Shown in pieces: positions 25,022-47,860 of a stretch of 64,000 nucleotides of DNA. How positions within the stretch are numbered: the stretch's first letter is position 1; each line of letters begins with the position of its first letter. Origin of the DNA: Gracilariopsis chorda. Its lineage: Eukaryota; Rhodophyta; Florideophyceae; Gracilariales; Gracilariaceae. The notes beneath the pieces were generated by a model. It was not told the DNA's origin, searched no databases, and worked only from the letters and a program-made list of their open reading frames with translations. The position numbers and the translations under genes were made by a program. Location of the stretch: assembly GCA_003194525.1 (NCBI GenBank), contig NBIV01000041.1, forward strand, positions 62,001 to 126,000, in the 5' to 3' direction.

Positions 25022-25326
25022 AAAACACTTAGTTTCTCCTTAGTGCAAAGTGCATCGTTCTGCTTCTTCCGATCATGTGAAAGTGCTATCAGTTTGATAG
25101 ATTACGCAAAATCTTCCATCGTCTTTGATCGTCTTACTAATTAACCTTTATGGTTCACCTCATACTTCCTATACTTCTGCCCAACAAGGTGTAACGATGA
25201 GTTGCAAAACCTGTCGGTTGCTTGCCCTCACAAGAATTTCTCTTTGATGATGGGGAAATACTTCTCTTCTTCGACAGCAAAAACGCCAATTGGTTTATCT
25301 TCTGCAAGATTAACCTGACATGATTT

Positions 25327-26989: not shown

Positions 26990-27339
26990 CGGTATCATAC
27001 CAAGTTGATCTTGTGACTGGCCTCCATTCGTTCCCTTTTTCCCTTTTTCTTTTCCCACTTTGGGTGGTACATCTGCCACTCACGTGGATTGCACTGGCCC
27101 TTGGGCCGCGCTCTCCACTTCATGTGCTACATATGGCTTACGAAGATATACACGTACCCACTCCATGGAATCACTTTTTCGCACCTCGCTGCCCCAGTGG
27201 AGACGGGATCGGCCTCAGTCTTACAATCGACCTTGTCGTGCCTTTTCCTTAAGAGGGCTCTATTACCGGGTACGCCTCTGAGAGAAAAAGAACCCGAACG
27301 TCTTCATGGTGCGTCCTCGCTCGCAGTTATTGCACTACA
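26990..27339 (+). repeat. Element B 5' LTR, 3' portion
   Basis: Ends ATTGCACTACA at 27339, like both LTRs of element A, followed by AAG and TGGTCTACTGACCTAGAA, the same spacing as in A. The preceding 350 bp shows patchy similarity to A's LTR, including GAACGTCTTC. Confidence 0.6.
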
Positions 27340-27443
27340 AAGTGGTCTACTGACCTAGAAGTGATCACCTGTGTAAGATCTTTTTATGGATTTGTTTGTG
27401 AGACCCAGAAGATTTCCGTAACTCCCGTCTACAGGGTTTAGTT

Positions 27444-28267
27444 ATGTCGAGGAAGCCTTCTGATGCGAAGCAAGCGCTCACTCGGAGCCGCTCCCACCAT
27501 GGTGGTGATTGTCCCGATGATTGGTTTCTGTCGAAGATCCCGATTCGACGTGGATCACATCCAGCGGGCAATGCTCCCTCCCAGCAAACGGGCCAAGGAC
27601 AGGAAAATCAGAATCTTCCACCCGCTATGGTGGACAACCTGACACCAAATGCTGGGCCGTCTACGGAATTTACAGCTGTAGCGAAAAAACCTTGCCATCT
27701 GGGACTGTCAAGAAGAACCAGGTTGTGCACTTGAATAAGCAGCTTTGTATTTGGCGATCTGCTGACAAAACTGTTGCCAGGCACCTACCTCCTTCAGTGG
27801 AGTGGTGGAGGTGAACCGTGTAAAAGATGTAGCCGAGGACCTCCGTCTAATACGTTCAGACGTCAACACATTGCTGGAATGCTTGGGTGGACCCGCTACC
27901 TTCGTCGAAGGGATTGAGACTCGATTAGATCGAGTTCGTGCCCATCTAGAGGCATTGGCGCAGATCATCATGGCAGACCCAGCTGCTGCAGTGGAACTGG
28001 AAGCTGTCTCACAGCGTGCCGAACACAGGCAGCGGCGGACGGTCTGAAAAAGCGAAGATCGGGAAAAAGGAAGCATTTCCGGTCGTCTTCGACCTGGTGG
28101 GAATTTTCTTCCAGTGACTGGGATAGCTCCAAAAGCTCAGATTCTGAGACCGGAAATCGTCACCGAGGGCACTTTTCCCGCTGTAAGCGGACATATGGCA
28201 CCGAAGGTGCTGTTCGCGCGGGGTCCAAGGGCAAGAAGTACTCAAGGCTGAAAGAATCGAAACTTAC
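27444..28267 (+). pseudogene. Element B gag, N-terminal part
   Basis: Starts MSRKPSDAK, matching MSRRPSSAE of element A, and contains AEDLRLIRSDVNTLLECLGG, matching A's AEDIRLLRADVNTVLECFGG. Frame changes break it. It stops at codons RLKESK followed by CTTAC where element A is inserted, and resumes at 39922 with NPMYGKWLSYRYYRL. Confidence 0.75.
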
Positions 28268-29173
28268 TGAAGTGCAATGTTCAAGGAGGAAGGCTCAGCG
28301 ATGTCCTGTGTACTTGATGTTTTTTTTTGCCGCTTTCGCGTGTTTATGATTACTACCGCTATTAGCGGGTGTCTCAGCCCTCAGCGGATCCGCGCTGTGC
28401 GCCAGGTGCCCACCTGTGCATGCGCCGTGTGCCGCCCAAGGCGTGAGTGGACCACGTGTGACACGGATAGTCAAGAGGAGGTTGGCACCACGGTGTGGAC
28501 ATTTAGTTAACTTATATTTATTATTTATTATTTATCTACGCTACAGTAGGGAGATTACTACACTATATAGTGGCTCGGCGACCTCGCCCTGACACTGAGT
28601 AAACTTCCCCAACCAGGGTTCTTGGCTCTAAGTCTTTTCCGCTTTCGCGAGTATTCTACACTCCTCGGAGGTAAAGCCGCGTTACTAACGGTAGACCTAT
28701 CCACCCTGCGTCACTAGGAGTATCACCGCCTTGGGCACTTGTCACTTAATTCACCACCGCCGTGTTCTCGCTCCTGTATAGGGTTCCTTTGTACCTTTTT
28801 CCGTGGTCCCGTTGGCCCACACCCCCGTCGCCCCCAATCGGGCATCCCCCGTATTTCCCTTACCCCACTCTCGTGGTTTCTACCCCTTTGTGTGGTTACT
28901 CATCACCGCTGACGCGTGTCTCTCGTGCCAGTATCCCGTGCCGTCTTCCCTCACTTACGTGGACTCGTACTCCTTGGAAGGGCTGTTTTCCCATTCGTGG
29001 TGATCCTAATCCTACCGTTTCAACTCTCCCCGCTTGGCGTGAGGATGAGCCTCGGCTTTACAACCCGACTTCGTCGTGCTCATCCGGAGAGGCTCCGTTC
29101 GCTGTGTTACCCTCGTGAGAGGAAGATTCCGAACGTCTTCGTGTGTTGTCTCGCTTGCGGGTATTGCACTACA
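28268..29173 (+). repeat. Element A 5' LTR
   Basis: 906 bp, TG...CA with imperfect 11-bp terminal inverted repeats. Contains a TATA-like palindrome CACTATATAGTG at 28561-28572, the probable promoter core, and an AT-rich TTATTTATTATTTATC stretch just before it. Confidence 0.92.
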
Positions 29174-29176
29174 AAG

Positions 29177-29194
29177 TGGTCTCCCGACCTAGAA
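29177..29194 (+). promoter_or_regulatory. Element A primer-binding site candidate
   Basis: TGGTCTCCCGACCTAGAA lies 3 nt after the LTR end and starts with TGG, complementary to a tRNA CCA end. Element B has TGGTCTACTGACCTAGAA at the same place. I cannot name the tRNA. Confidence 0.5.
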
Positions 29195-29288
29195 TCGGAA
29201 ACGGTTAGGTTTTGTATTACCTCTCCTCGGAGATTCACTGTCCAAACTTTTGGTTTCTTACCACTTCGTGGGAGTTTTTGGTCTACAC

Positions 29289-31403
29289 ATGTCTCGGCGA
29301 CCATCCTCCGCCGAACCCGTTGTCACGCGGAGTCGTTCCGTCAGTGACGTGGAACAGGCAGAGATCTCGAAGGTCCCCGTTGGCCACCCTCGACGTGCCA
29401 CTTTGAAAGGCAAGTCGAAGGGCCAAGACTCGTCGAGAGCCCAGAAACCCCCGCCTAAGGCGTTGAAGGACGCTCCCAACTCCGGTGTCGACCCGGCTTC
29501 TGCCGATGTAGCTGCACCCCGGAGGGGAGACCCCGATACCGACGACCCCCCTAGTGTCCAAGCGCAGCTTGAGGAGATGAGTGAAGCACACAATGCCCTC
29601 GTGGAGGAGTTTGAAGTCCTGCGTGTCAGGTTTGATATCTCTTCTATGAAGGATTTGGCTGAGGACATTCGCCTTTTAAGGGCGGATGTCAACACTGTGT
29701 TGGAATGTTTTGGTGGTCCTGCCAACTATGTTGAGAATGTGGAAACCCGATTTGATCGTGTCAGTGCCCGTCTGAGGACGTTGGAGCAAACTAACTTGAT
29801 GGATGACAACGTCCCGGGGAAGGCCGCTGCTGTCTCGCAAAAAGCGAAGCGCGAGAAGAAAGATTCTACCCGCTGCACTCGTAAGAAGCAGCCCCAGCAC
29901 GATCCCGACTCGTCGGATTCCTCCCTGTCTTCACAGGATTCTCACCATTCAGATGGTTCGGTGTCGTCGGATTCTTCGTCGGACGATGATCGTCGCCGAC
30001 GCCCGTCCCATTCTAAACGGTCTTCTTCCACCCAAGGTGTGACTCGCCCCCGGAGGAAGGGAAGGAAACACTTAAGATTGAGGGAACTCAAATGTACTAA
30101 TCCCCTCTACAATAGGTTGGTATCGTACCGATATTATCGGCTTGAGGACTCCTCATTGGATCGTACACCCCGTGGTACGGGTAAGGTGAAGGACTGCATA
30201 AAGCGTATGCAGCTTTCTTTTCGTAACTAGTCTTTTTCTGGAGAGGATCCCATATAGGTGTTGGACTTCCTCGGAAGGTTCGTTTCCGAAGCGGACATAC
30301 TTGGTATGAACGAAGGACAGGCGTTCATTGCCCTACCGTATTTTCTACGTGGCATCGCCGAGGATCAATACAACTCTGTAAGAGGTTCTTCCCGAGCCTC
30401 CGAAGGAGGTGTAACGTGCTGGCCGGAAGCGGTTCAGTACCTCTTGTGATCCTACGCGACGAACAACGCTATTCAGGGGGCTACTATCGCTCTACGCGAT
30501 ACCCGCCAGAAATCTGGAGAGACGGAAACCGAATTCTCGCTACGCCTTAATAAGGCTTTCCACAGGTGTGGCAATGTTTACTCGTCTGGAGAGCGCTGCA
30601 CCATGTACATCGATGAATTGGATCCAGCAATCCATACGCTGGTGGCCCGATATCGGGAGGATCGTCGTAACACCACCTACCTGGAGTTGATTCAACACGC
30701 GCAAGCGGAAGGTGATGCACTTCGAGCTCGTATCCCTGCATCGAAGTCTCGTCCCGCCAAGGCGTTGATGATGGAAGCCAGTTCACCATCTTTATCGCTA
30801 GCAGCGAGTGGACGCCCTTCAAGGGACTACGATAACGTGTACCTCGCTCAGGTTGGTGCTCAGTCTATTCCGACCACGGAACTGCCGCCCACGACGGATG
30901 CGTCCTACGACACAGCTCAGGAGAATTCCCTGCTGTATGTTGACGGACCCCGTGTTGACGGACCTCGCATCCCCTATTCGAATGGTGCCCTCCGGCAAAG
31001 TCGTCCCGGATGGAAGGATTCCCGCCCAGCGGTGAGACACACGGAGGCTCGTTCCGGTCAGCCGCCCCCACGCTCTGGAGTCATATGCCACATATGTTAC
31101 GAACACGGTCACATTTCACCGGACCGCATCCTCACTTTGAGAGAAGTAACCCGAGTGATCAGTAACTATGAAGCCCTTACGCCAGCGGAGAAGCAGACCG
31201 TTCCGATTGCATCGTACTTACGAGCGAAGACGGACTTCCCCCGGAATATCCCGGATACGAATCTGCGACACGCGTTGCTTTCCCCTGCTGAGCAGGTCAC
31301 TAACCCCCGTCTTGTTCGACAAGAAACCCCCGCTAGCGCTCCACTGCTAGTGGTTCAGGATTCTGAGACCCCGCCTCAGGCGGAACGGGCTCAGGAAAAC
31401 TGA
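29289..31403 (+). pseudogene. Element A gag with three in-frame stops
   Basis: Starts at ATG 29289 (MSRRPSS), chosen over an upstream ATG at 29250 because element B begins at the same residue. The N-terminal part is basic and Ser/Pro-rich, then a coiled-coil-like LEEMSEAHNALVEEFEVLR and acidic Ser/Asp runs. A capsid-like region follows (VLDFLGRF to about GNVYSSGERC), then a Pro-rich end with CHICYEHGH (partial zinc knuckle). In-frame stops: TAG 30228, TAG 30255, TGA 30447; the last replaces a Trp codon kept in element B. No frameshift over 705 codons. Final stop TGA at 31401. Confidence 0.8.
31394..31400 (+). promoter_or_regulatory. Gag-Pol -1 frameshift site
   Basis: GGAAAAC directly precedes the gag stop TGA. 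The pol frame is -1 to gag and is closed upstream by a stop at 31364, so the shift must happen within 31367-31400. Element B has GGGAAAC at the equivalent site (41662-41668), the classical retroviral-type X-XXY-YYZ heptamer. In A one G has become A. Confidence 0.65.
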
Positions 31404-34400
31404 GTTCGGGAGTCTCCCCTACCGGAGAGGCGCCCTCAGAGTTGAGGTTGAAGGCGCCCGAGGCGTCACTGCCTCGCTCCCCGGTCAAAATCCTTACTAG
31501 GAAACAGGCCGTCTTAGACGTGAACTCTGAACACTTTGGTGTTCTGCGTCGACCGTGGAAACGTGTTCGAAACAACCGGTTCCCGGACAGAGTTTTGGTA
31601 ATGGCCAAGAGAAACTACAAGGTATATGCTGACCGTGGCCTTTCCACCCAGTTTATGGTGCAAGTTCTCACTGTTTTGGACACAGGTGCAGGCCCGAACT
31701 TCATCGTTGGGTCGCTCCTGCCACCATCGTTGCAGTCTTAGATCTGCCATGGCGTGATACCGGATGTCGCGGATGCGAATGATAACCCGTTATCAACGGT
31801 TGGGACAGTCGACCTGGTCGTGCGCCTTGGCTCCTTTCTTGTGAAACTCGACTTTATTGTTTGTCGGAAACTTGCCGCCCCTTTGATCTTGGGATGCGAC
31901 TTCTGCGACAGATTCGTCGATGCCATCAGGCCCCGTCTAGGACGTGTGGAAATGGAAGACGGCTCGTCCGTTCCGATCTTACGTCGTCCTCTACGACGTG
32001 CCTCGAAGAAGCACGTTCCATTACCTGCTGCGCAGGAATCTCCACCGGCTTACCGGGACTCTACAAAGCTCCGCGTTGCCGCGTCTGTCCAACTCCCACC
32101 GGAATCCCAAGTTTGGGTACGAGTCACTTCCCGTCAACAGGGTTTACGAGTAATTCAACCCCTTACATCCCTATATGATAGGTATCAACTCGCCGTGGCG
32201 AATGGAGTAGCTCAAATTGAGCCCGACAAACCGTTCAACGTGCTGGTCGCCAATCTAGGCTCTACGCCCCAGTCACTGGTGAAAAACCAAGTCATTGGTT
32301 CGTTAATGCTCCACCCCACTGCGATGGTTCCCTCGAGAATGACTGCCGCTGATGTCCTCGGTCTCGTTCACTCTAAGAAGGGGGAGGACACTGCCGTCCA
32401 AATGCCGAAATGCTCGAATGCTAAGCCGGTTCCAACGAGTTACGACCGGATTGATCCCGTGAAATAACTCGAGGAACTTGACCTCGGTCATGTGCCGGAA
32501 TCGCACTGTGAACGTCTCCGTGAGATGCTACGGAATTTCACCACGATGTGAGATGGCTCCCTAGGGGAGATTACTACAACGGAGCACCGGATTGACTTGC
32601 TACCTGATACCAGGCCGATCGCTCAGCACCCCTATAGGGCAGGCCCTAAAGCTCGAGAAGAGGAAGAATTCCAAGTGGAAAAGATGCTCCGAGCTGGAGT
32701 AATAGAACCGGCTCAGTCGCCGTGGGCATCCCCAGTGTTACTGGCTCCGAAACCGGATGGATCCTGGCGCTTTTGCATCGACTACCGTCGACTGAACGCC
32801 GTAACCATCAAGGATGTGTACCCGATCCCACGAATGGATGAGTACATCGATTCACTCGGAAATGCTACCGTTTTCACGGCTCTAGACGCCAATTGGGGAT
32901 ACTGGCAGGTGCCCGTCAGGGAACAGGACCGCGACAAGACTGCTTTTGTCTGTCACTCCGGACTCTACCGTTTCAAACGGATGCCTTTTGGTTTGACCAA
33001 TGTTCCCGCTACTTTCTAGCGTGCTATCGACATACTACTGGCTCGCTTCAAATGGCGTACATGCCTCGTCTACCTGGAAGATATCATAGTATTCTCAGAT
33101 AATCTGGATGACCACCTCACACACGTGAGAGATATCATGACCACGCTACGTGAAGCTGGAGTTACTCTCAAGTTGAGGAAATGTGAGTTCTTTACAGATA
33201 AAGTGAAGTATCTGGGCCACATAATCCGCCCTGGGCGTGTGATGATCGAGGAAGCTGGAGTTAAGTCGCTCCGTCAAGCGAAGGAACCCGCCACTCAAAC
33301 GGAACTACGCTCCTTTCTAGGATTAGTCAACGTCTATCGACGGTTTATCCCAAGTTGTGCGGATATCTCAGCACCCTTGAACGCGCTCTTGCGGAAAGGC
33401 CAACCACCGAAATTGGAACCCTTTACGTCCGTCGAGACGAAAACGTTTAACTCCCTCAAGGAGGCTGTAACATCAGCACCGATCTTATCGTGACCGAAAC
33501 CCGGACTACCGTTTACCGTAGACACGGATGCTAGTGACTACCAAGTAGGTTGCGCTCTCTTTCAGACAACTCCCGAAGGAGAACGAACCCCTATTGGGTA
33601 CTGGTCACGCTCACTGAACGTTCACGAGCGGAATTACTCCGTCTCGGGGAAAGAGTGTCTTGCATTTGTGTGGGCACTCTCCACTCTCCGCCCCTATCTT
33701 ATGGGTGTGCACTTCACCGTTTAAACGGACCACTCGTCATTACGATGGCTCATGACAGTCTCTGAACCGTCAGGCCGCTTAATGCGTTGGAGGTTCCGCC
33801 TTGCGGAATTCGACTTCGAGGTGATCTACAAGAAGGGCACAAAGAACGCTCAGGCGGACGCGCTGTCGCGTTTACCCACGGATGGTGAAACTCTACCCGC
33901 TGGGGACGAGGACATTCCTTGCTTCGTCGTCAACGGTCGAGAACCGGAGGCCCCGGACCGTGAACCCGATAACTCGGATGAAGAACCGGAATCAGATGAT
34001 GAACTGGACGCACTACTCGTCTCGGACGATGCTCAGAAACCCCCACCGGGTAATTTCGTGCCAATACCCCCGGAAGAGATGGTCAGAGAACAACAAGGTG
34101 ATCCCTTCTGTACTCAGATTCGCGCCCGACTTAATGGCGGGGCGCAACTCCCTTTCGAGGTGAATGATGTTGGATACCTCGTCAGGACGGTTCAAACAAC
34201 CCCACAGGTAGTGGTACCGCATACTCTACAATCTAGAGTGTTGCACTTGTCGCACTATGCGAAACTTGGTGGACACGCCGGTGGACGGAAACTTTACCTC
34301 ACGTTGCGACGGAGTTACTATTGGCCAGCCATGGCTGTGGACTGCTACGCGACTGTGCGGTCATGCACGGAGTGTGCCAAAAACCGGGTCAAACTCCGGA

Positions 34401-35776
34401 AGCACTCAACGAAGTTGAAGTTATTTCCAGCACGGGCCCCTCTCGAGTTTGTCGCAACTGACCTCTTGGGACCGCTGCTCACCACAAAGCGTGGACATAA
34501 GTTTTCACTCGTTATCACGGATTGTTTCTCCATGTTGGTTCGCACCGTACCTTTATGGAAGATATCCGCTTTCGCGGTGGCGCAAGCCTTCGTTACCCAT
34601 TGGGTATTTGTCTACGGACCACCGGTTAACATTCTATCCGATAACGGAAAGCAATTCGCATCGCGATTCTTTGAGGACGTGTGTCGGATTCTCGATATCA
34701 AAAATCTGTTCACAACGACCTACCACCCCCAGTGTAATGGGCAAGTCGAGCGGTTTAACCGAACGTTGTTAGCCTCTCTCCGTTCTTACGTTGCTGATCA
34801 CCCCAAAACATGGGACCTGTACACTGACGCCTTGACGTTTGCGTATAACACACAGGTACACCGTACAACGGGTTTGACTCCATTTGAATTGGTACTTTCG
34901 CGTCATCCGCCCGCCGTAGCGTTGGAACCCCAGCCTACGCTGGCAAACGTCCCTTCCGTGAAGGATTATCGCCAACGATGGAAAGCGTGGTTTACGAAGT
35001 TAATCCCGGTCGCCCGGAGCTCCATGGCACGAGCAAAGGCCGCGTACAAGCGTGATTTTGAGTCTCGTGTCCGAGGTACAGCACCACCAATTAAGGAGGG
35101 TGACTACGTCTTCGTCCGTAAGGAGCACTGGAACCATGATAAGGAGAAACGGCATAAGCTCTCATCCGTCGCGAACGGTCCCTACAAGGTCATATCAGTG
35201 GATAACGACACCTTAGTGGTGGAAATGAACGACGCTCACGAGCGGATTTCCCGCGATCGCGTTGTTATGGCACCGCCACCTTCCGTAGAGGTTGCTTACC
35301 AAGATGAGAACCAACACACCCCAGTGGAACAACCCACATCTGTGGTTAACAGGCCTTCTGCGTTGCCACACCCTTCAAGGGGACTCTCAGATATACCGTC
35401 CTTATCGGACGCAGCCCTGAATGGCCTTTCTTCTCTAACGCCACCACGCGGTGTCTATCCCCGCAGTTTGGGCGCTTCTACCACTCCCTATGCCGCTCCA
35501 TCTAAGGAGGGGAGGAGAACCCTAACTCTCGTCGAGAGACTGAAACCGCTTCGTCGCGTCATGACAACCGTGGTGCACGGACCTCCGGAAACATCGAAAA
35601 GGACAATAGTGGACCGAGAATTCCGTCTACTGACGTGCCATCTTCGCATTTGCGCGCTACAGCTACCGCTGAACCATCTCGAGGAAGTTCTACCGCATCT
35701 GCGCCAGATCGCACTCCCCACCGGGATTCTTGTCGTCAAAATGCACCACGCAGTGGGAAGTCTCTCGCCAAAGTGA
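31400..35776 (+). pseudogene. Element A pol: protease, RT, RNase H, integrase
   Basis: One frame throughout. Protease VLDTGAGPNF (DTG at 31679) and LILGCDF; RT with PIPRMDEYIDSLGNATVF, RMPFGLTNVPATF and the catalytic box as YLEDI (expected YLDDI, about 33070); RNase H with VDTDAS, SGKECLAF and TDHSSLRW; integrase HHCC zinc region (HYAKLGGH ... CTEC) and DDE residues in ATDLLGP, LSDNGKQF and NGQVERF. Six in-frame stops: 31739, 32465, 32549, 33017, 33491, 33722. The TAG at 33017 replaces the Gln of PATFQ, the TGA at 32549 a Trp seen in B. No indels. It cannot make active RT as it stands. Confidence 0.9.
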
Positions 35777-36953
35777 AATCGTTGCAGGAAACTATTCGCG
35801 TTCGCGATACTGAACCGGCTGTACCGTCGAGCGTTGATCCGCATTCCGTGGGTCACGGTTCGTCAACAACAGCTACGCTGGATAATGCAGATCAGGCCCT
35901 CGCGGGATCCTCTGAGCCGACTACACCGGACGTGGTAACTACTACTGCACGGCAGAACACACCAGCCAGGCCGGGCAAGCACACCGTACAGGACGAAAGG
36001 AAAACGACCAGCAAGCTGGATTCTGGTTTAGGACCATCGCGCTGTCGCGAACTCACTCCGAGTGTCTCGGTTGATCCCGACAGTGTCGCCGAAGTCGCAC
36101 CAGTGACTCCGGAAGGAAAGCACGTCAAAGACGGAAATACTTCGTCGCCGAAGCGAGAAAACATACCGGCAGCACCGTTGCAACGGCCCTCACGTGAGGA
36201 GGTGGAACGCAACACGGCGCGGACAACCCTCGACCATCCGTTGCAAACGGCACGTGACCCCGACACCGTACGGAAGGCAAAGGCACCAATTACCGCCGGA
36301 GGCGAATCGACGCGTACTGTACGACGCACCGTGGTGCAACCGACTTCTTCGGCTAAAGCACCCCCGTCAAGACGGATATCTACACACAAACCTGTGGTTC
36401 GCGACCCAGATGCTCATCTTTCAGATGCGTTAGAAGCCCCTCAAAGGGATCGTCAATAGAAGCCCCCTCAAGGAGTGAAGAAACCGCGAAGCGGGATACT
36501 TTAACCCACAGCAAGGGTCCCGATACGCACCATCAATTGGTCGACGCAAACGGCCGTGCCGAGGACCTCCAGACCCGCGAAAGGGATGAACCTACCCGGA
36601 AACCGGTTAATGACCCCTCAAAGGGCATGGACAGGCAGTACCAAGCCATGCCCCTTCCGGGGAAGACTGTCCAACACCCACCAGTGGTGGTAGAGCCTGC
36701 CGTGCAGGACGCGATAATGCGAACACGGCGAGGCCGGGAAGTCTACAAACAGGAGTTTGTCGTTGACCACATTGTGGAACATTCTTACCATCCAGATGGT
36801 TACATCCAGTACCGCGTACGCTGGTATGGTTTCGGGCCCGAATATGATTCGGATGAGCCGATAGAGCACCTCCCACGTTCGAAAGTGGTTTCATATCATC
36901 GCAGAACGCGAACAGGAATCCCGGCATCGGTGATACACGCCCAAGTGGGATAA
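35635..36953 (+). pseudogene. Element A integrase tail and chromodomain
   Basis: A Pro/Ser/Thr-rich linker in a shifted frame (35635-36459) leads, after a second frame change, to 36537-36953 with a chromodomain: EFVVDHIVEHSYHPDG, then IQYRVRWYGFGPEYDSDEPI and HLPRSKVVSYH. Chromodomains of chromoviruses guide integration to modified histones. The two frame changes lie in the low-complexity linker. The element B equivalent is at about 46980-47130. Confidence 0.8.
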
Positions 36954-37166
36954 GCAAGCCACTGCGGTGGAAGGAAGGAAATGAAGGATCGAGTTGTGGT
37001 ATGGAAAGGAAGAAAGGAAAGGAAAAAAGAAGAAACACAAGTCAACTTGGATTTTATTCGATACGATCGATGGAACACCGACTAGTCGAAGGATTACACT
37101 ACGTCACAAGGTTGCACCCCCATGGTGAGGGAACACGCCCCCTTACGGGTTAGAACTGCCCCCACC

Positions 37167-38984
37167 TTAGTGGTTATTTCCCTGGAGTCGGGCAATCAGA
37201 GCATCCCGCATCGCGGTGACATCGGCACTGGCCTCGTTACCTCCCAGCCCCACTTGGCGGAGGAACTGAGAGATCACGGCAGCCTGACCCGCAGGGGCCA
37301 CGTTCGCCTCACCTGGCGTAGAGGACCCACCAGTGGGAAGACCGACCGACGGATTGGATGGCTGACTCGCAGGGGCGACTCCAGGAGCATCCATACCATA
37401 TGGTTCTCCCTCCGCCTCGGCGTGACCGGCACCTTCGTCGGGCTCGTTGTCGAACATCGGATCCTCACCGTCGTAGACGTTGTAGTACTCATCAGCGTCA
37501 ACAAACCCGGTCGGATGCCCCTTGGGGATATATCTCGGTGCAAACCGGAGCTCGTTCGCTTCCTCCGCGGAGATCTCAAGCCCCTCCCAAGGGTTGAAGT
37601 AGATGAAGTCACTCGCGAGCGGAGTTCGACGCCCTGGCGACAGGTCCTGTATCCGGCTACAGGCAGTACGCCCACTCTGCTCTAGAGGACCTGAAGCCCA
37701 GTCAACCTGGTCGATGAAATCGAGGAGCCCCACTACTTCGTCAGCGTTTGCCTCACCACCTAGTGGGATTTGTAAGTCCAGAGCTCGGATGGCGGCACGG
37801 ACCGGCAACGGGATGAACCACAGTCTGTGCTGGTCATAAACCTCCCAGAGGATGGAAGCCGCTGTGCGGACCGCCCATTCGGTGACCACCACGGACCAGA
37901 GCCCGGACTGAGGATCGTCGATGAGGTATGAGCCGTAATACTTGATCACGGGAGGCAACTCGATGTAGCAACCTTGGCACGCTTCGAGATGCGACCACCA
38001 CGGTGGAATCGGAACGTACCGACCCCGTCGGTTGACCACGCGGATGCGTTCGACTTCTACGTTCTGATACGGAATCAAATACCCGAATCGGGACCGTGCT
38101 CGCCGCTCAAAGCGTATCATCGACAAGAAGTTGGCCCTCGCTAAGCGACGCATATAGCAGAATTCAGCCCGAATGATCGGTCGTGTCCAGCACACCGCGT
38201 CTTGGCGCGCCGCGGGAATGCTTCTCCACAAGAGTGGTTCCAAACCCGCTAGGCGGTCGAAGTACCCCATTTCACCTTGGGTGCGATACAATCCGATGTC
38301 GGAGCCCATACCATCGGGGATGGGATATTCAAAGGGAGCCCGGCGAAGCCGTTGATGAGCGAGTAAGACCAACGCCGCGTGCGCGGAAGCTGCTGATTCC
38401 CGACCCCGTCGGATTACCGTGTGCACGGGTATCGCTATGCGATTGCGCCAATACCACGAAGTGGTCACGATTGCCAGAACGTCACCCGGGAGCATTCCGT
38501 TTCCATCGGTATACATCGCCAGAAGCGCATCATTGAACACCGCAGTCGGGTGGAACCACGGCGCCAGCCGGAGAGTCATCGCATGTTGTGAAGGCTGCAG
38601 CCCGACCAGCATGTCGTACGACGGCCACGCTGCCATTAGATACCCTCCCGTGGGAGCCGCACTCGCATTTGCGCCTGTTTGTTGCGAAGGAGTCGAGAGA
38701 CCGCTCTGGGGTAAAGGCACGGAATGAAATCCGGAGAAGTACTGTGACCGTGTGTTGCTGTTGTCGTTGCCGTTGTTGTTGCCGTTGTTGTTGTTCATCG
38801 TAGATGAAGGAAGCCGAGTAATCGAAGAAGAAGGCCGCGAAAGCGTACGTGTTGTTGGAAGAACCTCGGAAGAGTTGGTCGCAGATTCGCTGTTCGCAGC
38901 TAGGTGCTCGTTACCCAGAGTGGGATGGAAAACCGGCGAACCAGACTTATATTTAAGGACCTTGCCCGGTGCTTCCGTCGCCAT
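37167..38984 (-). CDS. Antisense ORF of the chromovirus, unknown function
   Basis: Intact 605-codon frame on the strand opposite to gag-pol, between the chromodomain and the 3' LTR. Its ATG is 25 bp inside the polypurine tract, so transcription would have to start in the 3' LTR. N-terminus (1-110) is Ser/Thr-rich with an Asn run (about 63-76). A Trp/Arg-rich middle (about 115-430) looks folded, with single cysteines (ACQGCY). An acidic stretch (DADEYYNVYDGEDPMFD) follows, then a Pro/Gly linker and a C-terminal helix (ISQFLRQVGLGG...MRDALIARL). No domain recognised. Unlike gag and pol it has no stop. Element B keeps its C-terminus at the same place and orientation. Confidence 0.75.
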   Translation of the reverse strand: MATEAPGKVLKYKSGSPVFHPTLGNEHLAANSESATNSSEVLPTTRTLSRPSSSITRLPSSTMNNNNGNNNGNDNSNTRSQYFSGFHSVPLPQSGLSTPSQQTGANASAAPTGGYLMAAWPSYDMLVGLQPSQHAMTLRLAPWFHPTAVFNDALLAMYTDGNGMLPGDVLAIVTTSWYWRNRIAIPVHTVIRRGRESAASAHAALVLLAHQRLRRAPFEYPIPDGMGSDIGLYRTQGEMGYFDRLAGLEPLLWRSIPAARQDAVCWTRPIIRAEFCYMRRLARANFLSMIRFERRARSRFGYLIPYQNVEVERIRVVNRRGRYVPIPPWWSHLEACQGCYIELPPVIKYYGSYLIDDPQSGLWSVVVTEWAVRTAASILWEVYDQHRLWFIPLPVRAAIRALDLQIPLGGEANADEVVGLLDFIDQVDWASGPLEQSGRTACSRIQDLSPGRRTPLASDFIYFNPWEGLEISAEEANELRFAPRYIPKGHPTGFVDADEYYNVYDGEDPMFDNEPDEGAGHAEAEGEPYGMDAPGVAPASQPSNPSVGLPTGGSSTPGEANVAPAGQAAVISQFLRQVGLGGNEASADVTAMRDALIARLQGNNH

Positions 38985-39008
38985 CGTGGATGTAGTATTC
39001 GCCCCTCA

Positions 39009-39018
39009 GGAGGGGGAT
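39009..39018 (+). promoter_or_regulatory. Element A polypurine tract
   Basis: GGAGGGGGA-type purine run ending one or two bases before the TG of the 3' LTR; would prime plus-strand DNA synthesis. Confidence 0.75.
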
Positions 39019-39019
39019 A

Positions 39020-39921
39020 TGAAGTGCAATCTTCAAGGAGGAAGGCTCAGCGAGATCCTGTGGACTTGATGTTTTTTTTGCCGCTTTCGCGTGTTTATGA
39101 TTACTACCGCTATTAGCGGGTGTCTCAGCCCTCAGCGGATCCGCGCTGTGCGCCAGGTGCCCACCTGTGCATGCGCCGTGTGCCACCCAAGGCGTGAGTG
39201 GACCACGTGTGACACGGATAGTCAAGAGGAGGTTGGCACCACGGTGTGGACAATTAGTTACCTTATATTTATTATTTATTATTTATCTACGCTACAGTAG
39301 GGAGATTACTACACTATATAGTGGTTCGGCGACCTCGCCCTGACACGTAAACTTCCCCAACCAGGGTTCTTGGCTCTAAGTCTTTTCCGCTTTCGCGAGT
39401 CTTCTACACTCCTCGGAGGTAAAGCCGCGTTACTAACGGTAGACCTATCCACCCTGCGTCACTAGGAGTATCACCGCCTTGGGCACTTGTCACTTAATTC
39501 ACCACCGCCGTGTTCTCGCCCCTGTATAGGGTTCCTTTGTACCTTTTTCCGTGGTCCCGTTGGCCCACACCCCCGTCGCCCCCAATCGGGCATCCCCCGT
39601 ATTTCCCTTACCCCACTCTCGTGGTTTCTACCCCTTTGTGTGGTTACTCGTCACCGCTGACGCGTGTCTCTCGTGCCAGTATCCCGTGACGTCTTCCCCC
39701 ACTTACGTGGACTCGTACTCCTTGGAAGGGCTGTTTTCCCATTCGTGGTGATCCTAATCCTACCGTTTCAACTCTCCCCGCTTGGCGTGAGGGTGAGCCT
39801 CGGCTTTACAACCCGACTTCGTCGTGCTCATCCGGAGAGGCTCCGTTCGCTGTGGTACCCTCGTGAGAGGAAGATTCCGAACGTCTTCGTGTGTTGTCCC
39901 GCTTGCGGGTATTGCACTACA
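39020..39921 (+). repeat. Element A 3' LTR
   Basis: 902 bp, about 98% identical to the 5' LTR. Element B gag resumes at 39922 immediately after the terminal ACTACA. Confidence 0.92.
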
Positions 39922-41668
39922 CCTAGGAATCCAATGTATGGAAAGTGGTTGTCATACCGATATTATCGGTTGGGGGATACCTCAATAGATCGAACGGTCG
40001 GTGACCCGGGTAGAGTGAGAGATTGCATTAATCAAATTCAGCTCTTACTGCGTGACTAGACGTTTTATTGAGAGGAATCCATACTGGTGTTGGACTTTTT
40101 CGCACGATTCGTGGCTGAGGGCGACATATGCGTGGTGAGTGAAGCTCAGCCTTACATCAATTTGCCTTACCTTCTACGGGTTGTACCTGATGACCCATTC
40201 AAATCTGTAAGAGGCTGTAGTCGTGCCTTAAATGGGGGGTTTAGTCGCTGGCCGAAAGCAGTGCAGTACGTACTGTGGTCGTATGCAACGAATCTTGCAA
40301 TTCAATCGGCGATACTTCCTTAGCGAGACACGCGCCAGAAGCCTGCTGAGCTCAAAACCAACTGTTCGGTACACCTGAACACACTAGAAGAAATTTTTGC
40401 ACTTTTAGAAGAGCAGTTGGAGTGCAATATTCAAGGGTCTGGCAAGGGTGTCGCACTCCGTTTTGGTTCAGGTAGAGCTCCCTGTATCCTCCAAATAGAA
40501 ACGTCTGGCCCACAAAATTGCAATTTTTTAATTTTTTGGATGTGGCGCTGCTTTTAAATGGCATGCGGCCGCTTTCAAAAGATTGAAGTTGGATTATAAA
40601 TGGAATGCAGAGGGTTTGACCACCACTTCATCTGTGTAGCATTTGCACTCCTTGGGAATCTGATTTGGATACATCGAGTCTGGGCCAGAAACCGAGGTTC
40701 ACAGACTTCCGGATGCCTTCCATTTAGCTTCCGAGCGTCATCCACAACGGCCACGCACGGTCCAAATGCCCTCCTATTATTCCAAAATTTTCTTTTAGGG
40801 ACAAGGCCTTCCACGGATGTTGTAATATATATTCCGCGCTGGAGCAGTGTATGATGTTCATCGAAGACCAGTACCCAGGTATCAAAACCTTTGTGGGGAC
40901 GTACCGGGAAGACGGGCAGAAGCTCACTTACCTCGAGTTAGGGCAGTACGCCCGTGCAAAGGGGAACGCATTTTGTGCACGTGACCCTCAGCTAAGGTCA
41001 AAGCCCGAGAAAGCGTTGATATCGGAGGGCAAGTCCACTTCTCTATCGATAGGAGCGGATGAGCTACCCAAGTTGGGGTATGACAACGGTCACATCGCTC
41101 ACGGTGATAGCGGGTCCGTCCCGATGTTGGAGCTCCCATCTACGTTGGACGGAATGCACGCGACAGCGCGGGACGACAACCTCTTGTATGCTAAAAATGA
41201 TAGAGCCCAGGCTCCTCGGATCCCGTATGCTAACGGATACCACTGCAATTAGCGGCCTGGCTGGACGGACACTTGCTTAGTGGGACGATCCCCTGATAAT
41301 CAGAATATGGACCCTCGTTCGGCTTTGATGTCTTTCATATGTCACCTGTACTACTCGCCTAATGACACCTCGCCCCATTGCCTCCTATCCGTGAGGGTCG
41401 TGTCGAAGATTGTGACCACCTACGAGGCTCTAACAGCCAACAAGAAGGCATCCATGCCGATGGCCTTTTATCTACGCGCTAAGACGGGCTTCTCGCACGC
41501 GGTTCCAACTGCCCTGCTCAGGCGTCGTAGCTCAGTTAAACTGGCTCAAGCCGCACCACATGCCCGCGATCCAAACCCGCTTTGGCGCTTAACCAAGGCC
41601 GGGATGGCCAAGCCCTCGTGGTTGAAGAGTCTGAGCAACAAGCCCAGGAGCCCCTGCCGCAGGGAAAC
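39922..41668 (+). pseudogene. Element B gag, C-terminal part
   Basis: Continues the interrupted gag (SYRYYRLGDTSIDRT, then VLDFFARFVAEGD and SYATNLAIQ), homologous to element A along its length. A TAG at 40057 lies at the same codon as A's TAG at 30228. The MITE at 40382-40800 splits codons that otherwise read HLNKAF (RLNKAF in A). Ends with CAG-GGA-AAC-TAA, the slippery site directly before the stop. Confidence 0.75.
40382..40800. mobile_element. CACTA-like MITE (419 bp)
   Basis: Starts CACTAGAAGAAATTTTTGCA; the reverse complement of its end starts CCCTAAAAGAAAATTTTGGA (16 of 20 identical). It is flanked by a 3-bp duplication ACA (40379-40381 and 40801-40803). Removing it with one ACA restores the gag reading frame exactly. 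TIR sequence and 3-bp duplication fit the CACTA (CMC/EnSpm) superfamily. No transposase coded. Confidence 0.75.
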
Positions 41669-44600
41669 TAATTGAGGGAATCTCACTGTTAGGAAAGACG
41701 TCCTCGAATTAAAAGTTTTTGACGCCCAAGGCGCCATCGCCACACTCCCCGGAGAAAGCCCTCTCGAGGAAGGACGTCGGAGACACGAATATATAACACC
41801 TTGGTGTTCCGCGTCGACCGTGGATACGGGTAAAGAACCACCGGATCCCGGACTAAATCATGGTGATGGCCAAGCGAACTTATAAGGTATAGGCTGACCT
41901 TGGCCCAAAACCCCAGTTTCTGGTGAGATACGCGACTGTCCAGACAGAGGTCCAGGCCCGAAATTCATCCTATAATCAGCCCTACCTCCACAGCTGCGGT
42001 CTCATATCCATACTGAAACCGTGCCAGATATTGCTGATGCGAACAACAACCCTTTGAAAACGGTAGGATCAGTCGACATGGTTCTGAGACTAGGAAACTC
42101 CGTGGTGAAGCTCAATTTCATTGTGTGTCAGTTGCTGGCCACTATAGTTATAATGTGATGTGACTTCTGCGACAGGTCTATCGAAGCCATCCAGCCCTGC
42201 CAACGCGTGGTGAAACTGGAGCATGGCACGACAGTACCTGTCGTCCGCCCACCGCTAAAGCGGGGGTCACAGAAGCAGAATCCACTGCCTGCTGCGCAAG
42301 AGACACAACCGACCGTTCGGGAGACTATGAAGATCTGCTTGGGCTGATCAGTATCAATTCCCCCCAAATCTAAGGTAATGGTTGAGGTCGACGCCCGTGA
42401 GCACGGTTTGCGGGTTGTTGAACCCCTTCCTTTGCTGTACCAGCAGTACCAGTTAACCGTCACTAACGTACAGGTGCACGTGACGCCGGATACTACGTTT
42501 CGTATAATGGTTGCCAACCTAGGCAAAACTCCCCAGTATCTGGAAAAAAAAGAGGTGATTGGGTCACTCACGCCCCACCCGTTGGCCATGCTCTGTACAA
42601 AGCTGACGGTCGCCGATTTTCTTAGGGTTGTCACGCATGACGAGAGCCTCGAGGGGGAAGCAGCCCAAAATGATGGGGAAGAGAAGTTACTTCAGGCAGA
42701 CAAAATGGAAGGACCGAACAACTGGGATATGGCACGGGGCACAGGAGAAGGAGGGCCCACTGGCTACGATAAGGTGGACCGCCTCAAGGACCTACAGTAA
42801 CTCAACCTCGGTCCCGTACCCGAGTGGCACCTTGAACGCTTCCGTGATTTGTCAAGGGGATTTACCCCCATTTGGGATGGTTTTCTTGGTGAGATAAATG
42901 CGACGGAGCAGTGGATAGATCTGTTACCAAACACGAAACAGATAGAACTACACCATTACAGCGCAGAACCGAAAGCTCAGTAAGGAGAACAGTTTCAAGT
43001 AGAAAAATTGCTCCGCCCAGGCGTTACTGAACCCGCTCAGTCGCCCTTGGTATCTGCAGTGGTACTGTCTCTGAAGGTCGGCGGGACCTGCAGGTCTGTG
43101 TCGAGTGTTGCAAGCTTAATTCCCTGAGTGTAGGTGACATTTTTCTCATATTCTGTATGGATGGGTGCATCGATTCGCTCGGAAACGCTACCGTGTTCAC
43201 TGCGCTGGATGCCAACTCGGGATGCTGCCAAGTCTCTGTACGGGAGGAAGGCCCCAACAAAACTGTGTTTGTCTGCCTCTTTGGCTCCTACCGCTTCAAG
43301 CGGATACCATTTGGACTTGCCAATGCCCCCGCTACCTTGCAACGCGCCGCTGTCATTCTGTTGAACCGGTTCAAATGGCAGACGTGTGTGATATATCTAG
43401 ATGACATCAATGTATTCTCAGATAATCTGGATGACTGTCTCACCCATCTCAGGGACGTAATGACCATATTTCAGGATGGGAGCTTAACCCTCGAGCTGAG
43501 GAAGTGTGATTTCTTCACTGACACCTTCACGTATCTGGGACACATCATCCGTACTGGACGATTAACGATCGAGCAAGCTCGTGTGAAGTCCCTCGCTAAG
43601 GCGAATGCGCCGCCCACACAAGCCAAACTCTACTCCTTCTCAGGGTTGGTCAACATCTACCGACGGTTTGTCCCAACTTTTTCGGATATCTCGGCCTCCT
43701 TGAACGCGCTCCTGCATAAGCGACAACCCTCTAAGCTGGACCACGTCACGTCCGAACAGAAGGACGCTTTTAACTTCTTAAGGTAGGCAGTCATTTCAGC
43801 ATCGATACTGCCCCTGCCCACACCGGATATTCCGTACTGCGTAGACACAAACTTGAGCGACTATTAGGTCGGCTCTGCGCTCTTCCAAACTGCCTCAGAG
43901 GTGGAAGGACACCCAATCGGTTATTGGTCCAACTCGCTCAATGCTCACGAGCATAATTACTCTGTCTCGGAGAAGGATTGCCCCACTGTCATATGAAGGC
44001 TTACCACTCTCCCTCTCTATCCAATGGGCGTTCATTTCACCGTTTATATGGATCACTTCTCTTTGAGATGCCTGACGAATATTTCGGATCCATCTGGCCG
44101 GCTGGTGTGGTGGAGACTCCCCCTAATAGAAAATGACGTTGACGTCATCTACAAGAAAGGAGCGCAGAATACCCAAACTGAGGCTCTATCGCGGTTACCC
44201 ACCGATGGCCAAGCACTCACTATGGAGGAAGATGAGACTCCGTGCTTTATGGTAGACTACACCACACCGGAAGCCCCGGAATCGCCGGACCCCAACTGGC
44301 CAGAACGCTGGGAATGTGATGCTGAAGTTCACGAACTTCTCACCTCGACCGAGACTCCTACTGAGAACCCCGTACCAGGAAAGTTCGGAACCATCCAACC
44401 GGAGGAGATGGCCCGGGAAAACTTTGCGAACCCTTTCTGTGGGAATAAACGTGCCCGTCTAAACGGTGGCGAGACCCTCCTATTCGAGTTAAACGACGTC
44501 AGCTACTTAGTTCGAACTGCCGAAGCTACCTCATAAGTCGTGGTACCCCACGCTCTGCACACGTCGGTCGTACACCTGTCGCACTACGCGAGGTAGGTGG

Positions 44601-44912
44601 CCACGCTGGCGAACGGAAGCTTTACCGTACCCTGAGGAGGGAATTCTATTGACCTGCAATCGCAGTCGCTTGTTAGGCAACCGTGCGGTTCTGCACGGAG
44701 TGTGCCAAGACTCAGGGGAAGAGCCTTACAATCTTCCGCCCAAGGGTGCCGCTCTAGTTGTCGCAATTGAAATTCTTGGCCTACTCCTCACCACTTGGAG
44801 AGGCAACAGATTCTTACTCGTTATCACGGACCGTTTATCAAAACTGGTTTGGAATGTCCTTCTACGGAGTATCGCTGCGTACACAGTAGCGAACGCCTTT
44901 GTTACGCACGTG
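41662..44912 (+). pseudogene. Element B pol (PR, RT, RNase H, truncated integrase)
   Basis: Homologous to element A pol but with many stops and several frame changes. RT is clearest at 43157-43786, with an intact YLDDI box (about 43398), FGLANAPATLQRA and LRKCDFFTDTFTYLGH. RNase H at 44024-44200 (DHFSLRCLTN, EALSRLPTDGQ). Integrase core starts (LLVITDRLSKLV) and breaks at VANAFVTH (44912) where a solo LTR is inserted. The downstream integrase part with the second Asp and Glu is not found. Confidence 0.8.
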
Positions 44913-45540
44913 TGTAGTGAAAAACCCGAAGATTGGGTATCACACTCAAGTTGTCCAGGGCCTTGCTCCCTGTGGAGGCAGACCCAGTGACAGAGTCCTC
45001 TGTATACCTGTAATACGGGCGTAACTCCGTAGGTATTTCGGATTGACCACAGAAGTGGATAAAGAAAGGGTAACCGGAGCCAGGAAGGCGATAAAACCAG
45101 AGACCGGTATGCCACGTGATGCGGCGGTTTGGAATATACCCGGTGAAGCGTGCCTTCCAAGGACGGGAAAAAAACCCCGGTGGGTCGTGCGGAAAGCGGA
45201 AACAGACGCGAAGGAGGGTGAACATGAACGAGATGTAGCTGACGAAATACCCAATACAGAGGGGATACCAGTACCACACGGTATATAAATGTCACACGAC
45301 AATTATAACACAGAGTATCTGTAGGTTTACCGAGGAGGTGAATTGAGCGAACCAAATGCGATGACCCTCCGCAAGGAGTAGTACATGGCACAACGACCTC
45401 ACAATCCAGAGCCAGATACCTCAGGTCAAACTGAACAGTTGAATGACCGAAGTCTTGGGTTAACTTTACTGCTCGCGACGACGAAGTCCCGCTCACCTAA
45501 GTAGGTATACGACCATACTAAATTATGATAATTAACTACA
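44913..45540 (+). repeat. Probable solo LTR inside element B integrase
   Basis: Sequence unrelated to A's LTR begins TGTAGTGAAA and ends AACTACA, so termini are inverted repeats (TGTAGT/ACTACA). A TATATAAATG box lies at about 45282. No target duplication is visible, and the integrase does not resume cleanly afterwards, so a deletion accompanied or followed insertion. Confidence 0.45.
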
Positions 45541-47130
45541 ATAGTGCACACCTCCTCAGATTCTCACACGCCAGGACAGTTTCAGGCACCCTGAGGTGTC
45601 AAACCAATTAAAACAAAACACTACAGCATGGTGCTGTCGCACACGCGCACACGCGTCCACTCATCCTGCAATCCATTCTAGATTCATACCTTCCTAGGTT
45701 ACACTTGACACAGTAAACCATCCCATTGGCATCACCCCGTACGGTTCCCACTCACGTACGGTACAGCTGCCACGGTAGCCGCTTCGCACTCCTATGAGTA
45801 GCATTATTGCGATTTACACGCATTTTGCGTTGCACCATAACACCCACGTCTGTTCCACGATCGAGTTACACTGGCAACTCCACCCTCTTCATAGGTCGTA
45901 CTCAAGCCCCCTGTTTTCCAGAATCCCGTCAATTCGGGAACATCAGCAACACCGGGTACACGGTAACTAGAGCGACCTGCCCTTCTAGCACACCCCACCA
46001 GTGGCCTGTCAGACCTTCCGTACATTTCGGAAGATAAACCGACTTTGTCGGACGGTGCTGCCTCATCAAAACAGCTCACAACAATTCCAGTCAAACCTGG
46101 AATTTATACCAGCAACGCGCTTCCTCGGTTGCCTTCCATAGCTCCTTCTAAGAGGGGAGAGAACATTTCTCATAACCTCAGTAGTTCGCCGACGCAACGG
46201 AATATACCCCATGAAGCACGGATAAATGACCAAGAGTCACCATCAATACCGGTTCAAGACCACGAAGGGCCACTCTCGGCGACGGAAAACGAGTATGCGA
46301 ACGCAGAAATGCCACTGGAGCCCACCGCAGAAAACTGCCATGTCTCGAAGGAACCAGCTGCGCTGGACGCTCAACTGCGTGCCAGGTTGAGGAAAGCCGA
46401 CTCCATGAGCCAGGAAAAGGAAGTTACGCCACCCTCATCGGTGTACAATGGCGACAGAGAGAAAGAAACAACAGGCTTTCTTGCTACAGCAGACGAAGAG
46501 AACTTCAGCAGACCCTGGACTCGCGCACCACAAAGCACCAGGATGTCCGGGACACATGCACGTTGGAAATGGAATTTTTGTCCACAAAAAGGGAACTCTC
46601 GAATAAAATATCGGCACGTTTTGAAGCGTCCACGCCCCACAAGGGGAACATATGGCAGTGGCCGCGCCGGAAATAGGCGCAGGAGCTGGAGCGTCAGCCC
46701 ATTGCAAACAGGCCATGGTGCCGGCAAGGAAGGCATATTGCCGGGCAAACCGTCGCCAGCTGCTGATGACGTCACGGGTTGTCACTGCTACCCAGCAAGG
46801 GCAGCCATAACAACTCGCCGATGGCGAAGAAGCACGAAGTTGCCAAGTCAGTGAATCACTCAACCGTTAGGAGACCCGCCGACTTGTGGTACGACCGGGC
46901 TACTGTAAACCGGTCACCGAAAACACTCTAAGGGAACAACAACCCAACGTGGGCAGCCCTGGAGCAACGCCGCATGGCGTAGCTATGAAACGGCGCAGAC
47001 AGGAAGCTTACATACAGGAATACGTGGTTGACCAGATTGTCGGACACTCGTATGACGAGAAAGGTGCTCTACAGTACCACTTACGTGGTATGGGTACGAC
47101 GCTTAGTTCCATACGGCCGAGCCGATAGAG
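45541..47130 (+). pseudogene. Element B linker and chromodomain
   Basis: Disordered linker frame (46045-46854), then 46985-47128 with EYVVDQIVGHSYDEKGALQY, matching the chromodomain start of element A. A frame change follows; the next frame reads on to a match of A's EPIEHLPRS. Pseudogene. Confidence 0.65.
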
Positions 47131-47637
47131 AATGGCCCACGTTCACAAATGGTACGCTATCAACGCAACGCGGGCATGGCCACACCAGCAAAGATGCATA
47201 AAGAACAAGCGGGTTAACTCTACCTTTTTACGGACAACACCACAGGAGTGAAATGGCTGCGTCGGAAACTGTGACTTCTTCACTCGGAATCTATCGTTTC
47301 GTTTCATCAGTTGATAATTATTCATGCAGCGCGCTGGCGTATCAGCACCAAACACACAGTGTTTCTAATTGACGATGGTGTATGTTTTGCCGTTTACACT
47401 CTAACAATTAAGAACACCTTCATGAAGTCAGAGTGACACCGCGAGAACATCCCTAGCCCCAGTTCTCCGGTCTGCATACCCCTGCAATAGAAACAACGCC
47501 GCCTCTATAAGGTGTAGTGGAGAACATCGCCATGAAACACGGAAGGAAGAAAGAAGGCCAGGACAATCTAACAATCCCAGGTGAGGGAGAATTTATTTCT
47601 ACGACTGTAAGGCGGAAGCCCTGGGGTAGGAAGCCGG
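47131..47637. other. Element B spacer, no gene
   Basis: Between the chromodomain and the antisense ORF remnant; the corresponding spacer in element A is about 210 bp. No recognisable coding content. Confidence 0.5.
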
Positions 47638-47860
47638 TCACTGTGTATCTCCATTTGGAGGTGGGCCCCCGCCAAGATGATTTGCCAACGTAACACGCAT
47701 CGTGGCCAGGTCACCTGAAGTGTCGTTCATGCTCATACCGACTCCTCGGAGGACCGTGGCCATGATCACACCTTTGTCTACACCTGCAACAGGAGCCTCT
47801 GTACCGGCGGTCGCCGTTGGGTGCCCCGAAGCTGGGGTTGTACTCGCCCCATGCTACGCA
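47638..47860 (-). pseudogene. Element B antisense ORF, C-terminal remnant
   Basis: Minus-strand frame ending TGA at 47638 reads APVAGVDKGVIMATVLRGVG and then NDTSGDLATMRVTLANHL. The last 26 residues from LRGVG align with the C-terminus of element A's antisense ORF without gaps at about 11 identities, with further similar residues. Upstream coding is replaced by the copia element. Same position and orientation as in A. Confidence 0.6.

What the first reader, a model, noticed from the sequence alone, without database searches (positions are those of the whole stretch)
37167..38984. Long antisense ORF in a gypsy chromovirus, conserved in a diverged relative
A 605-codon frame runs opposite to gag-pol between the chromodomain and the 3' LTR of element A. 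It has no stops, while gag and pol of the same copy carry nine. Element B keeps the last part of the same protein at 47638-47860 in the same place and orientation (11 of 26 identical at the C-terminus), although B is very decayed. That argues for selection on an antisense gene. Antisense ORFs exist in some plant LTR elements; I do not recognise this protein.
Basis: partly seen in the sequence, partly recalled or inferred. Interest (0 to 1): 0.9.

Follow-up and report, generated by a model that had tools for sequence, protein, structure and literature searches.

The report
Conserved antisense gene in seaweed retrotransposons
A family of jumping genes in the red seaweed Gracilariopsis carries an extra gene written backwards next to its end repeat, and natural selection has kept its protein over a long time, although its shape and job are still unknown.

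Summary
The 605-codon frame at 37167-38984(-) is real and is a gene. The window is very probably from the red alga Gracilariopsis chorda. The frame lies between the chromodomain and the 3' LTR of an 11.7-kb Ty3/gypsy chromovirus nested in the gag of element B. The genome holds hundreds of relatives; the loci compared fall into nine subfamilies with cores 37-71% identical. In 17 of 17 loci printed, the homologous frame faces pol in the same place. Protein core and integrase-chromodomain give the same unrooted tree. Between subfamilies dN/dS is 0.11-0.19 in the 6 of 22 pairs not saturated. Among six subfamily-2 copies the core has pN/pS near 0.14. The start codon lies 35-57 nt from the LTR edge in four subfamilies, so the promoter is probably the 3' LTR read backwards. 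AlphaFold gives a confident 389-residue core without a PDB match. Antisense accessory ORFs are known in plant and Botrytis elements; this is a new protein family in red-algal chromoviruses.

The parts
28268..29173 (+). 5' LTR of element A (906 bp)
29193..30677 (+). gag region of element A (broken frames)
   Evidence: 89% to the matching open frame of sister copy L028; named gag by position, no Pfam gag hit
32552..33490 (+). reverse transcriptase region, split by an in-frame stop
   Evidence: PF00078 in two adjoining frames
33725..35773 (+). RNase H end and integrase (zinc-binding and core domains)
36756..36899 (+). chromodomain at the end of pol
   Evidence: PF00385, 27.3 bits, cut-off 25.1
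37167..38984 (-). antisense accessory gene, 605 codons, convergent with pol
37485..38651 (-). part coding for the confidently folded core (residues 112-500)
   Evidence: pLDDT 85, pTM 0.86
39008..39019 (+). polypurine tract between the antisense ATG and the 3' LTR
   Evidence: sequence read directly; role from general knowledge of LTR elements
39020..39921 (+). 3' LTR; its left edge lies 35 nt from the antisense ATG; inferred antisense promoter
47653..47853 (-). C-terminal relic of the homologous antisense gene in element B
46937..47214 (+). chromodomain region of element B, upstream of the relic
27435..28035 (+). gag of element B before the insertion of A
39928..40928 (+). gag of element B resuming after A (A is nested in B)

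Best explanation
This is an accessory protein gene of a red-algal lineage of Ty3/gypsy chromoviruses, on the strand opposite to gag-pol between the chromodomain and the 3' LTR. Shown: the frame is old, present in at least nine subfamilies, co-inherited with pol and under purifying selection. Inferred: the integrated copy transcribes it backwards from a promoter in its 3' LTR, giving an mRNA that converges with the end of pol. The protein has a disordered Ser/Thr/Asn/Gln/Pro/Gly-rich N-terminus, a folded, mostly helical core with a basic segment, an acidic disordered linker and two C-terminal helices. It most likely acts in the nucleus on the element's own DNA or RNA, or on host chromatin, in a way that helps the element propagate (transcriptional activation, protection from silencing, or help to the integration complex).
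For: Frame faces pol in 17 of 17 loci printed, all chosen as carriers of the protein. Trees of protein core and integrase-chromodomain share 8 of 8 splits. dN/dS between subfamilies 0.11-0.19 in 6 of 22 pairs, the rest saturated; RT, IN and chromodomain 0.06-0.31 between subfamilies where computable. Six subfamily-2 copies: third-position excess, core pN/pS about 0.14. Stop-free: 20 of 38 full-length rows, 60 of 73 rows, 62 of 75 (best-scoring places only). The five other frames carry 7-22 stops per copy. Start 35-57 nt from the LTR edge in 27 of 30 loci listed, 22 of 25 distinct copies, and 54 nt in L031. No transmembrane-like stretch in the window protein, acidic linker. Confident core fold.
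Against: No transcript or protein evidence was available. The window protein has no classical nuclear-localisation pattern; of 8 proteins only the distant P0004 and P0005 do. No known DNA-binding or enzymatic domain was found. Close copies of A show no constraint. The protein changes faster than integrase in the same pairs (W-L009 55% against 68% identical, W-L029 44% against 64%). dS exceeds 3 in 5 of the 6 computed pairs; only L029-L030 (dS 1.65, ratio 0.12) is comfortable. Positive rather than negative action is inferred from constraint alone.
Confidence: 0.55

Rival explanations
1. It is a brake: like HBZ/APH-2 of the HTLV group, the protein made from the 3' LTR lowers sense expression and keeps copies quiet.
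For: Same geometry as hbz, which is made from the 3' LTR and lowers HTLV-1 expression (passages of PMC10186651); a protein made only from integrated DNA suits feedback (inference).
Against: Long-lasting constraint and co-divergence over nine subfamilies are easier to explain for a factor needed for spread than for a self-repressor (inference). No bZIP or other known domain was found.
Confidence: 0.25
2. It is a structural or enzymatic helper in the particle or integration complex rather than a gene regulator.
For: A predicted globular core with many invariant charged and aromatic residues; purifying selection.
Against: No enzyme family or fold match. Its location outside gag-pol would make it a separate product, not part of the polyprotein (inference).
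Confidence: 0.2
3. The antisense RNA is what matters (dsRNA or interference with pol); the open frame is a by-product.
For: Convergent layout with pol, 185-198 nt between the two frames in L009, L012 and L036, stop codons included; the review PMC7264820 raises an RNA role for plant elements.
Against: Codon-level constraint and protein conservation at 37-71% core identity are unexplained by RNA function.
Confidence: 0.03
4. Chance open frame kept open by base composition or by sense coding.
For: Close copies of A decay neutrally. In subfamily 2 one sense frame also has a low ratio (0.435), because its third positions coincide with those of the antisense frame (the reason is my inference).
Against: Chance of about 1e-10; sense frames hold 7-21 stops per copy; homologues in nine subfamilies and in Agarophyton chilense.
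Confidence: 0.01

Closest known systems
Antisense additional ORFs (aORF-3R) of plant Ty3/gypsy elements: Retand lineage with TRP28 (PF04195), maize Grande gene23, rice RIRE2
   Same: Extra frame between pol and 3' LTR, antisense to gag-pol, conserved in most copies, function unknown, proposed nuclear regulator (PMC11963269, abstract and passages; PMC7264820, parts 1-2 of 3).
   Different: Retand is a non-chromovirus lineage with a POL-3'LTR region of 2.9-6.6 kb and TRP28. Here the elements are chromoviruses, the region is about 2.1 kb in A, the start lies a few dozen bases from the LTR, and no Pfam domain matches.
Boty-like elements of Botrytis cinerea with antisense gene brtn
   Same: Antisense extra gene in a gypsy element outside plants (a passage and the cited title of Zhao et al. 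2011 in PMC8365987; mention in PMC7264820).
   Different: Host is a fungus; the brtn protein was not available here, so homology is untested.
HBZ/APH antisense genes of HTLV-type retroviruses
   Same: Expressed from the 3' LTR in antisense (PMC10186651, passages); the short ATG-LTR distance suggests the same here.
   Different: No bZIP domain found; no env found; no transcript data here.
Env-like third ORFs of LTR elements
   Same: Position between pol and 3' LTR.
   Different: Opposite strand; no transmembrane-like stretch in the window protein.

Membership tests
Chromovirus (Ty3/gypsy with chromodomain) | Chromodomain after integrase | tested here: met
   (PF00385 above cut-off in A); homologous region in 17 of 17 loci printed
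Chromovirus (Ty3/gypsy with chromodomain) | LTRs with TG..CA ends, polypurine tract, RT-RNase H-integrase order | tested here: met
Chromovirus (Ty3/gypsy with chromodomain) | RT placement in a tree with named chromovirus clades | not tested
   no named reference RT set was fetched
Antisense additional ORF (aORF-3R) class | Frame between pol and 3' LTR on the opposite strand | tested here: met
[quoted passage not shown]
   dN/dS in the range of RT/IN/chromodomain and matching trees, though the protein changes faster than integrase in the same pairs
Antisense additional ORF (aORF-3R) class | Presence in most copies of the lineage | tested here: inconclusive
   417 and 95 exact LTR-PPT edges and roughly 65, 73 and 74 scored copies in three groups, but chromoviruses without the gene were not counted
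Retand/TRP28 antisense protein | TRP28 domain PF04195 | tested here: not met
   (no PF04195 at E up to 1 in 8 members)
HBZ-like antisense protein | Transcript starting in the 3' LTR | not testable with these tools
   no RNA data; geometry only
HBZ-like antisense protein | bZIP domain | tested here: not met
Env-like protein | Sense orientation and transmembrane segment | tested here: not met
   minus strand; highest 19-residue hydropathy of the window protein 1.11; of 8 proteins only P0005 reaches 1.97
brtn of Boty | Sequence homology to brtn | not tested

The most novel reading that the evidence does not exclude
Red-algal chromoviruses acquired once, before the Gracilariopsis-Agarophyton split, a protein with a fold not seen before. 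It is expressed from the integrated copy through a two-way LTR and is needed for propagation, possibly as an anti-silencing or integration-targeting factor. It would be a third independent invention of an antisense accessory gene in Ty3/gypsy elements besides those of plants and fungi.
Probability: 0.35. Interest if true: 0.75.

Novelty: new variant of a known kind. Interest (0 to 1): 0.6.

Why it matters
Here an antisense gene of an LTR element can be shown to be under selection, with codon-level constraint and co-divergence across nine subfamilies. It adds red algae to plants and fungi as places where such genes occur, and gives a defined core for structural and biochemical work on what these proteins do. 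A public annotation currently calls one copy a hypothetical protein of the alga (P0007).

Tried and rejected

Viral and prokaryotic collections: no relative in IMG/VR, none in PHROGs or NCBIfam, no BFVD match at E<=0.001 for the full-length model (the core model was not tried there).

Nonsense deficit in subfamily 1 (3 stops against 12.4 expected): rejected as evidence, because 14 of my 17 copies had been picked from stop-free rows. RNA fold of the pol-antisense gap: no structure (z 1.14). The promoter scan uses a bacterial consensus and says nothing here. The gene model of P0007 has a short predicted intron; several sister copies have one open frame covering both parts, so I treat the intron as doubtful. 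The cruder reference-anchored alignment gave higher synonymous distances inside subfamily 2 (0.153 for L009-L013 and L009-L012) than the codon alignment (0.090 and 0.087); I use the latter.

Full report
WHAT IS THERE. Element A spans 28268-39921 with LTRs of about 900 bp that are 97.8% identical. Sense frames hold RT, integrase and a chromodomain above Pfam's cut-off, and a gag region named by position, in separate open pieces. The minus-strand frame 37167-38984 has 605 codons and starts with ATG. At the window's stop frequency the chance of 605 open codons is about 1e-10. A is nested in the gag of element B: B's gag runs 27435-28035 and resumes at 39928-40928. No perfect target-site duplication was seen around A. 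B's relic of the same antisense protein at 47653-47853(-) is confirmed (E 1.6e-5 with a subfamily-2 protein).

HOST. The only named hits in three protein searches are from the red algae Gracilariopsis chorda (P0007) and Agarophyton chilense (P0008). P0007 lies on a contig of 70517 bases; contig C355 of the window's own genome has that length and holds the gene, 100% over 94 and 99% over 475 residues (one search gave 99% for the larger part). The window is therefore very probably from G. chorda (Rhodophyta, Gracilariales). An rRNA check failed twice.

COPIES. Searches of the own genome returned 76, 73, 75, 70, 82 and 85 match rows with six queries. Only the best candidates are scored, rows overlap between queries, and a copy can give two rows; one search holds about 65 subfamily-1 copies and 6 subfamily-2 rows. 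Full-length rows without stops: 20 of 38. Rows without stops: 60 of 73 and 62 of 75; scoring the best candidates favours intact copies. The exact 18-base LTR-polypurine edge of the subfamily 1/2 type occurs 417 times and that of subfamily 3 occurs 95 times, with 0 for the backward controls. These edges count 3' ends, not open frames.

LAYOUT. I hold 36 loci, 31 of them distinct copies. For 17 (W, L009, L010, L012, L013, L015, L017, L024, L028-L036) the positions of chromodomain and antisense frame were printed: in 17 of 17 they face each other. All were chosen because they match the protein, so chromoviruses lacking it were not sought. Eleven of them (W, L009, L012, L029-L036) were compared for divergence and form nine subfamilies: core identity is 37-71% between subfamilies; L009/L012 (98%) and L032/L034 (94%) count once each. 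Not all copies are intact: the frame found at the best hit has only 434 codons in L032 and 235 in L034, and in L031 the N-terminus lies in another frame. In L009, L012, L028 and L036 the adjoining pol frame through the chromodomain is open over 743-842 codons.

CO-DIVERGENCE. Protein-core identities and integrase-chromodomain identities correlate (Spearman 0.84, 55 non-independent pairs), and the two FastTree trees share 8 of 8 splits. Support is 0.89-1.00 in the protein tree, but three nodes of the pol tree are weak (0.06, 0.54, 0.68). The subfamily of L036 is 54% identical to the Agarophyton protein but 37-44% to the other G. chorda subfamilies, so subfamilies appear older than the split of the two genera, unless transferred between them. 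Exchange between elements also happens: L009 and L012 differ at 59% of synonymous integrase sites but 3.5% in the chromodomain and 8.7% in the antisense gene.

SELECTION. Seventeen close copies, A included: dN/dS median 0.68 (0.79-0.93 in the other five frames), variable sites 127/122/128 by codon position, 88 silent private changes against 87.2 expected; that is neutral decay. Six subfamily-2 copies: median dN/dS 0.36 against 0.435-1.27 in the five other frames; variable sites 36/34/72 (P 6e-5); 26 silent private changes against 15.7 expected (P 0.01). In alignment columns 141-520, pN is 0.002-0.015 and pS 0.011-0.104 over 15 pairs, a ratio of about 0.14 of the means (my arithmetic); in columns 1-140 pN is similar to pS. 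Between subfamilies, dN/dS of the antisense frame is 0.11-0.19 in 6 of 22 pairs; the other 16 are saturated, and dS is above 3 in 5 of the 6. RT, integrase and chromodomain give 0.06-0.31 between subfamilies where computable. The protein changes faster than integrase in the same pairs (W-L009 55% against 68% identical). The same stretch read in the five other frames carries 7-22 stops per copy.

START AND PROMOTER. Between the LTR edge and the ATG there are 35 nt in subfamily 1, 55-57 in subfamily 2 and 50 in L029 (27 of 30 loci listed, 22 of 25 distinct copies); L030 has 213, and for L027 and L028 the edge motif was not found. In L031 the distance is 54 nt (positions). The start codon is ATT in one copy (L002, held again as L017). 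The polypurine tract lies in this gap. A promoter must therefore sit in the 3' LTR or beyond it. This is inference; no RNA data were available.

PROTEIN. N-terminus 1-117 is Ser/Thr/Asn/Gln/Pro/Gly-rich (60%), segment 281-311 is basic, linker 496-562 is acidic (net -15), and the window protein has no transmembrane-like stretch. AlphaFold with 8 sequences: whole protein pLDDT 58.5, pTM 0.53; core 112-500 pLDDT 85, pTM 0.86, mostly helical. Foldseek found no PDB match at E<=0.001, and no Pfam, PHROGs or NCBIfam family reached a cut-off. A structural match could still be missed: the second aligner was not available for the core model and predicted cellular proteins could not be searched.

KNOWN RELATIVES OF THE IDEA. 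[quoted passage not shown] PMC7264820, parts 1-2 of 3) and in Botrytis Boty elements (brtn; passage, cited title and a mention only). Retroviral HBZ is made from the 3' LTR (PMC10186651, passages). A survey of fungal chromoviruses mentions additional ORFs of unknown function but the word antisense does not occur in it (PMC2864245, passages and section 5). Bdelloid rotifer elements carry varied third ORFs (PMC5408684, passages). No paper on such a gene in red algae appeared in the listings, which cover one open-licence library. The G. chorda genome paper (recalled) was not among them. The finding is thus a new protein family and host group for a known kind of gene.

MECHANISM. Shown: an old, selected, co-inherited antisense protein gene. 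Inferred: expression from the 3' LTR of integrated copies, nuclear action, net benefit to the element. Activator, anti-silencing factor, integration helper and brake are not separated by sequence alone.

Noticed in passing
27282-28267 and 39922-47853: Element A is inserted in the gag gene of the older element B, so B is split into two parts by A; B's LTR tail is recognisable at 27282-27339.
   Followed up: yes
L009, L012: Integrase and the 3' module (chromodomain plus antisense gene) have different histories in subfamily 2: integrases differ strongly while the 3' modules are close, a sign of template switching between elements.
   Followed up: partly
L031:2403-4185: The public gene model of this copy (BWQ96_10156) uses a short predicted intron; several sister copies have one open frame covering both parts, so a retroelement gene is annotated as a host gene with a doubtful intron.
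   Followed up: partly
5310-10727 (-): Open frame of 1805 codons with Helitron-like N-terminal and PIF1 helicase domains.
   Followed up: no
122-1426 (+): Open frame with UL52-type and C962R-type primase domain matches above their cut-offs, at the window's left end.
   Followed up: no
2829-3282: Tandem duplication of 227 bp, two identical copies.
   Followed up: no
25120-26540 (-): Fragment of another, more distant gypsy-type RT and RNase H-integrase region on the opposite strand.
   Followed up: no
59194-59790 (-): Open frame with a p24/GOLD-family domain match, probably a host gene.
   Followed up: no
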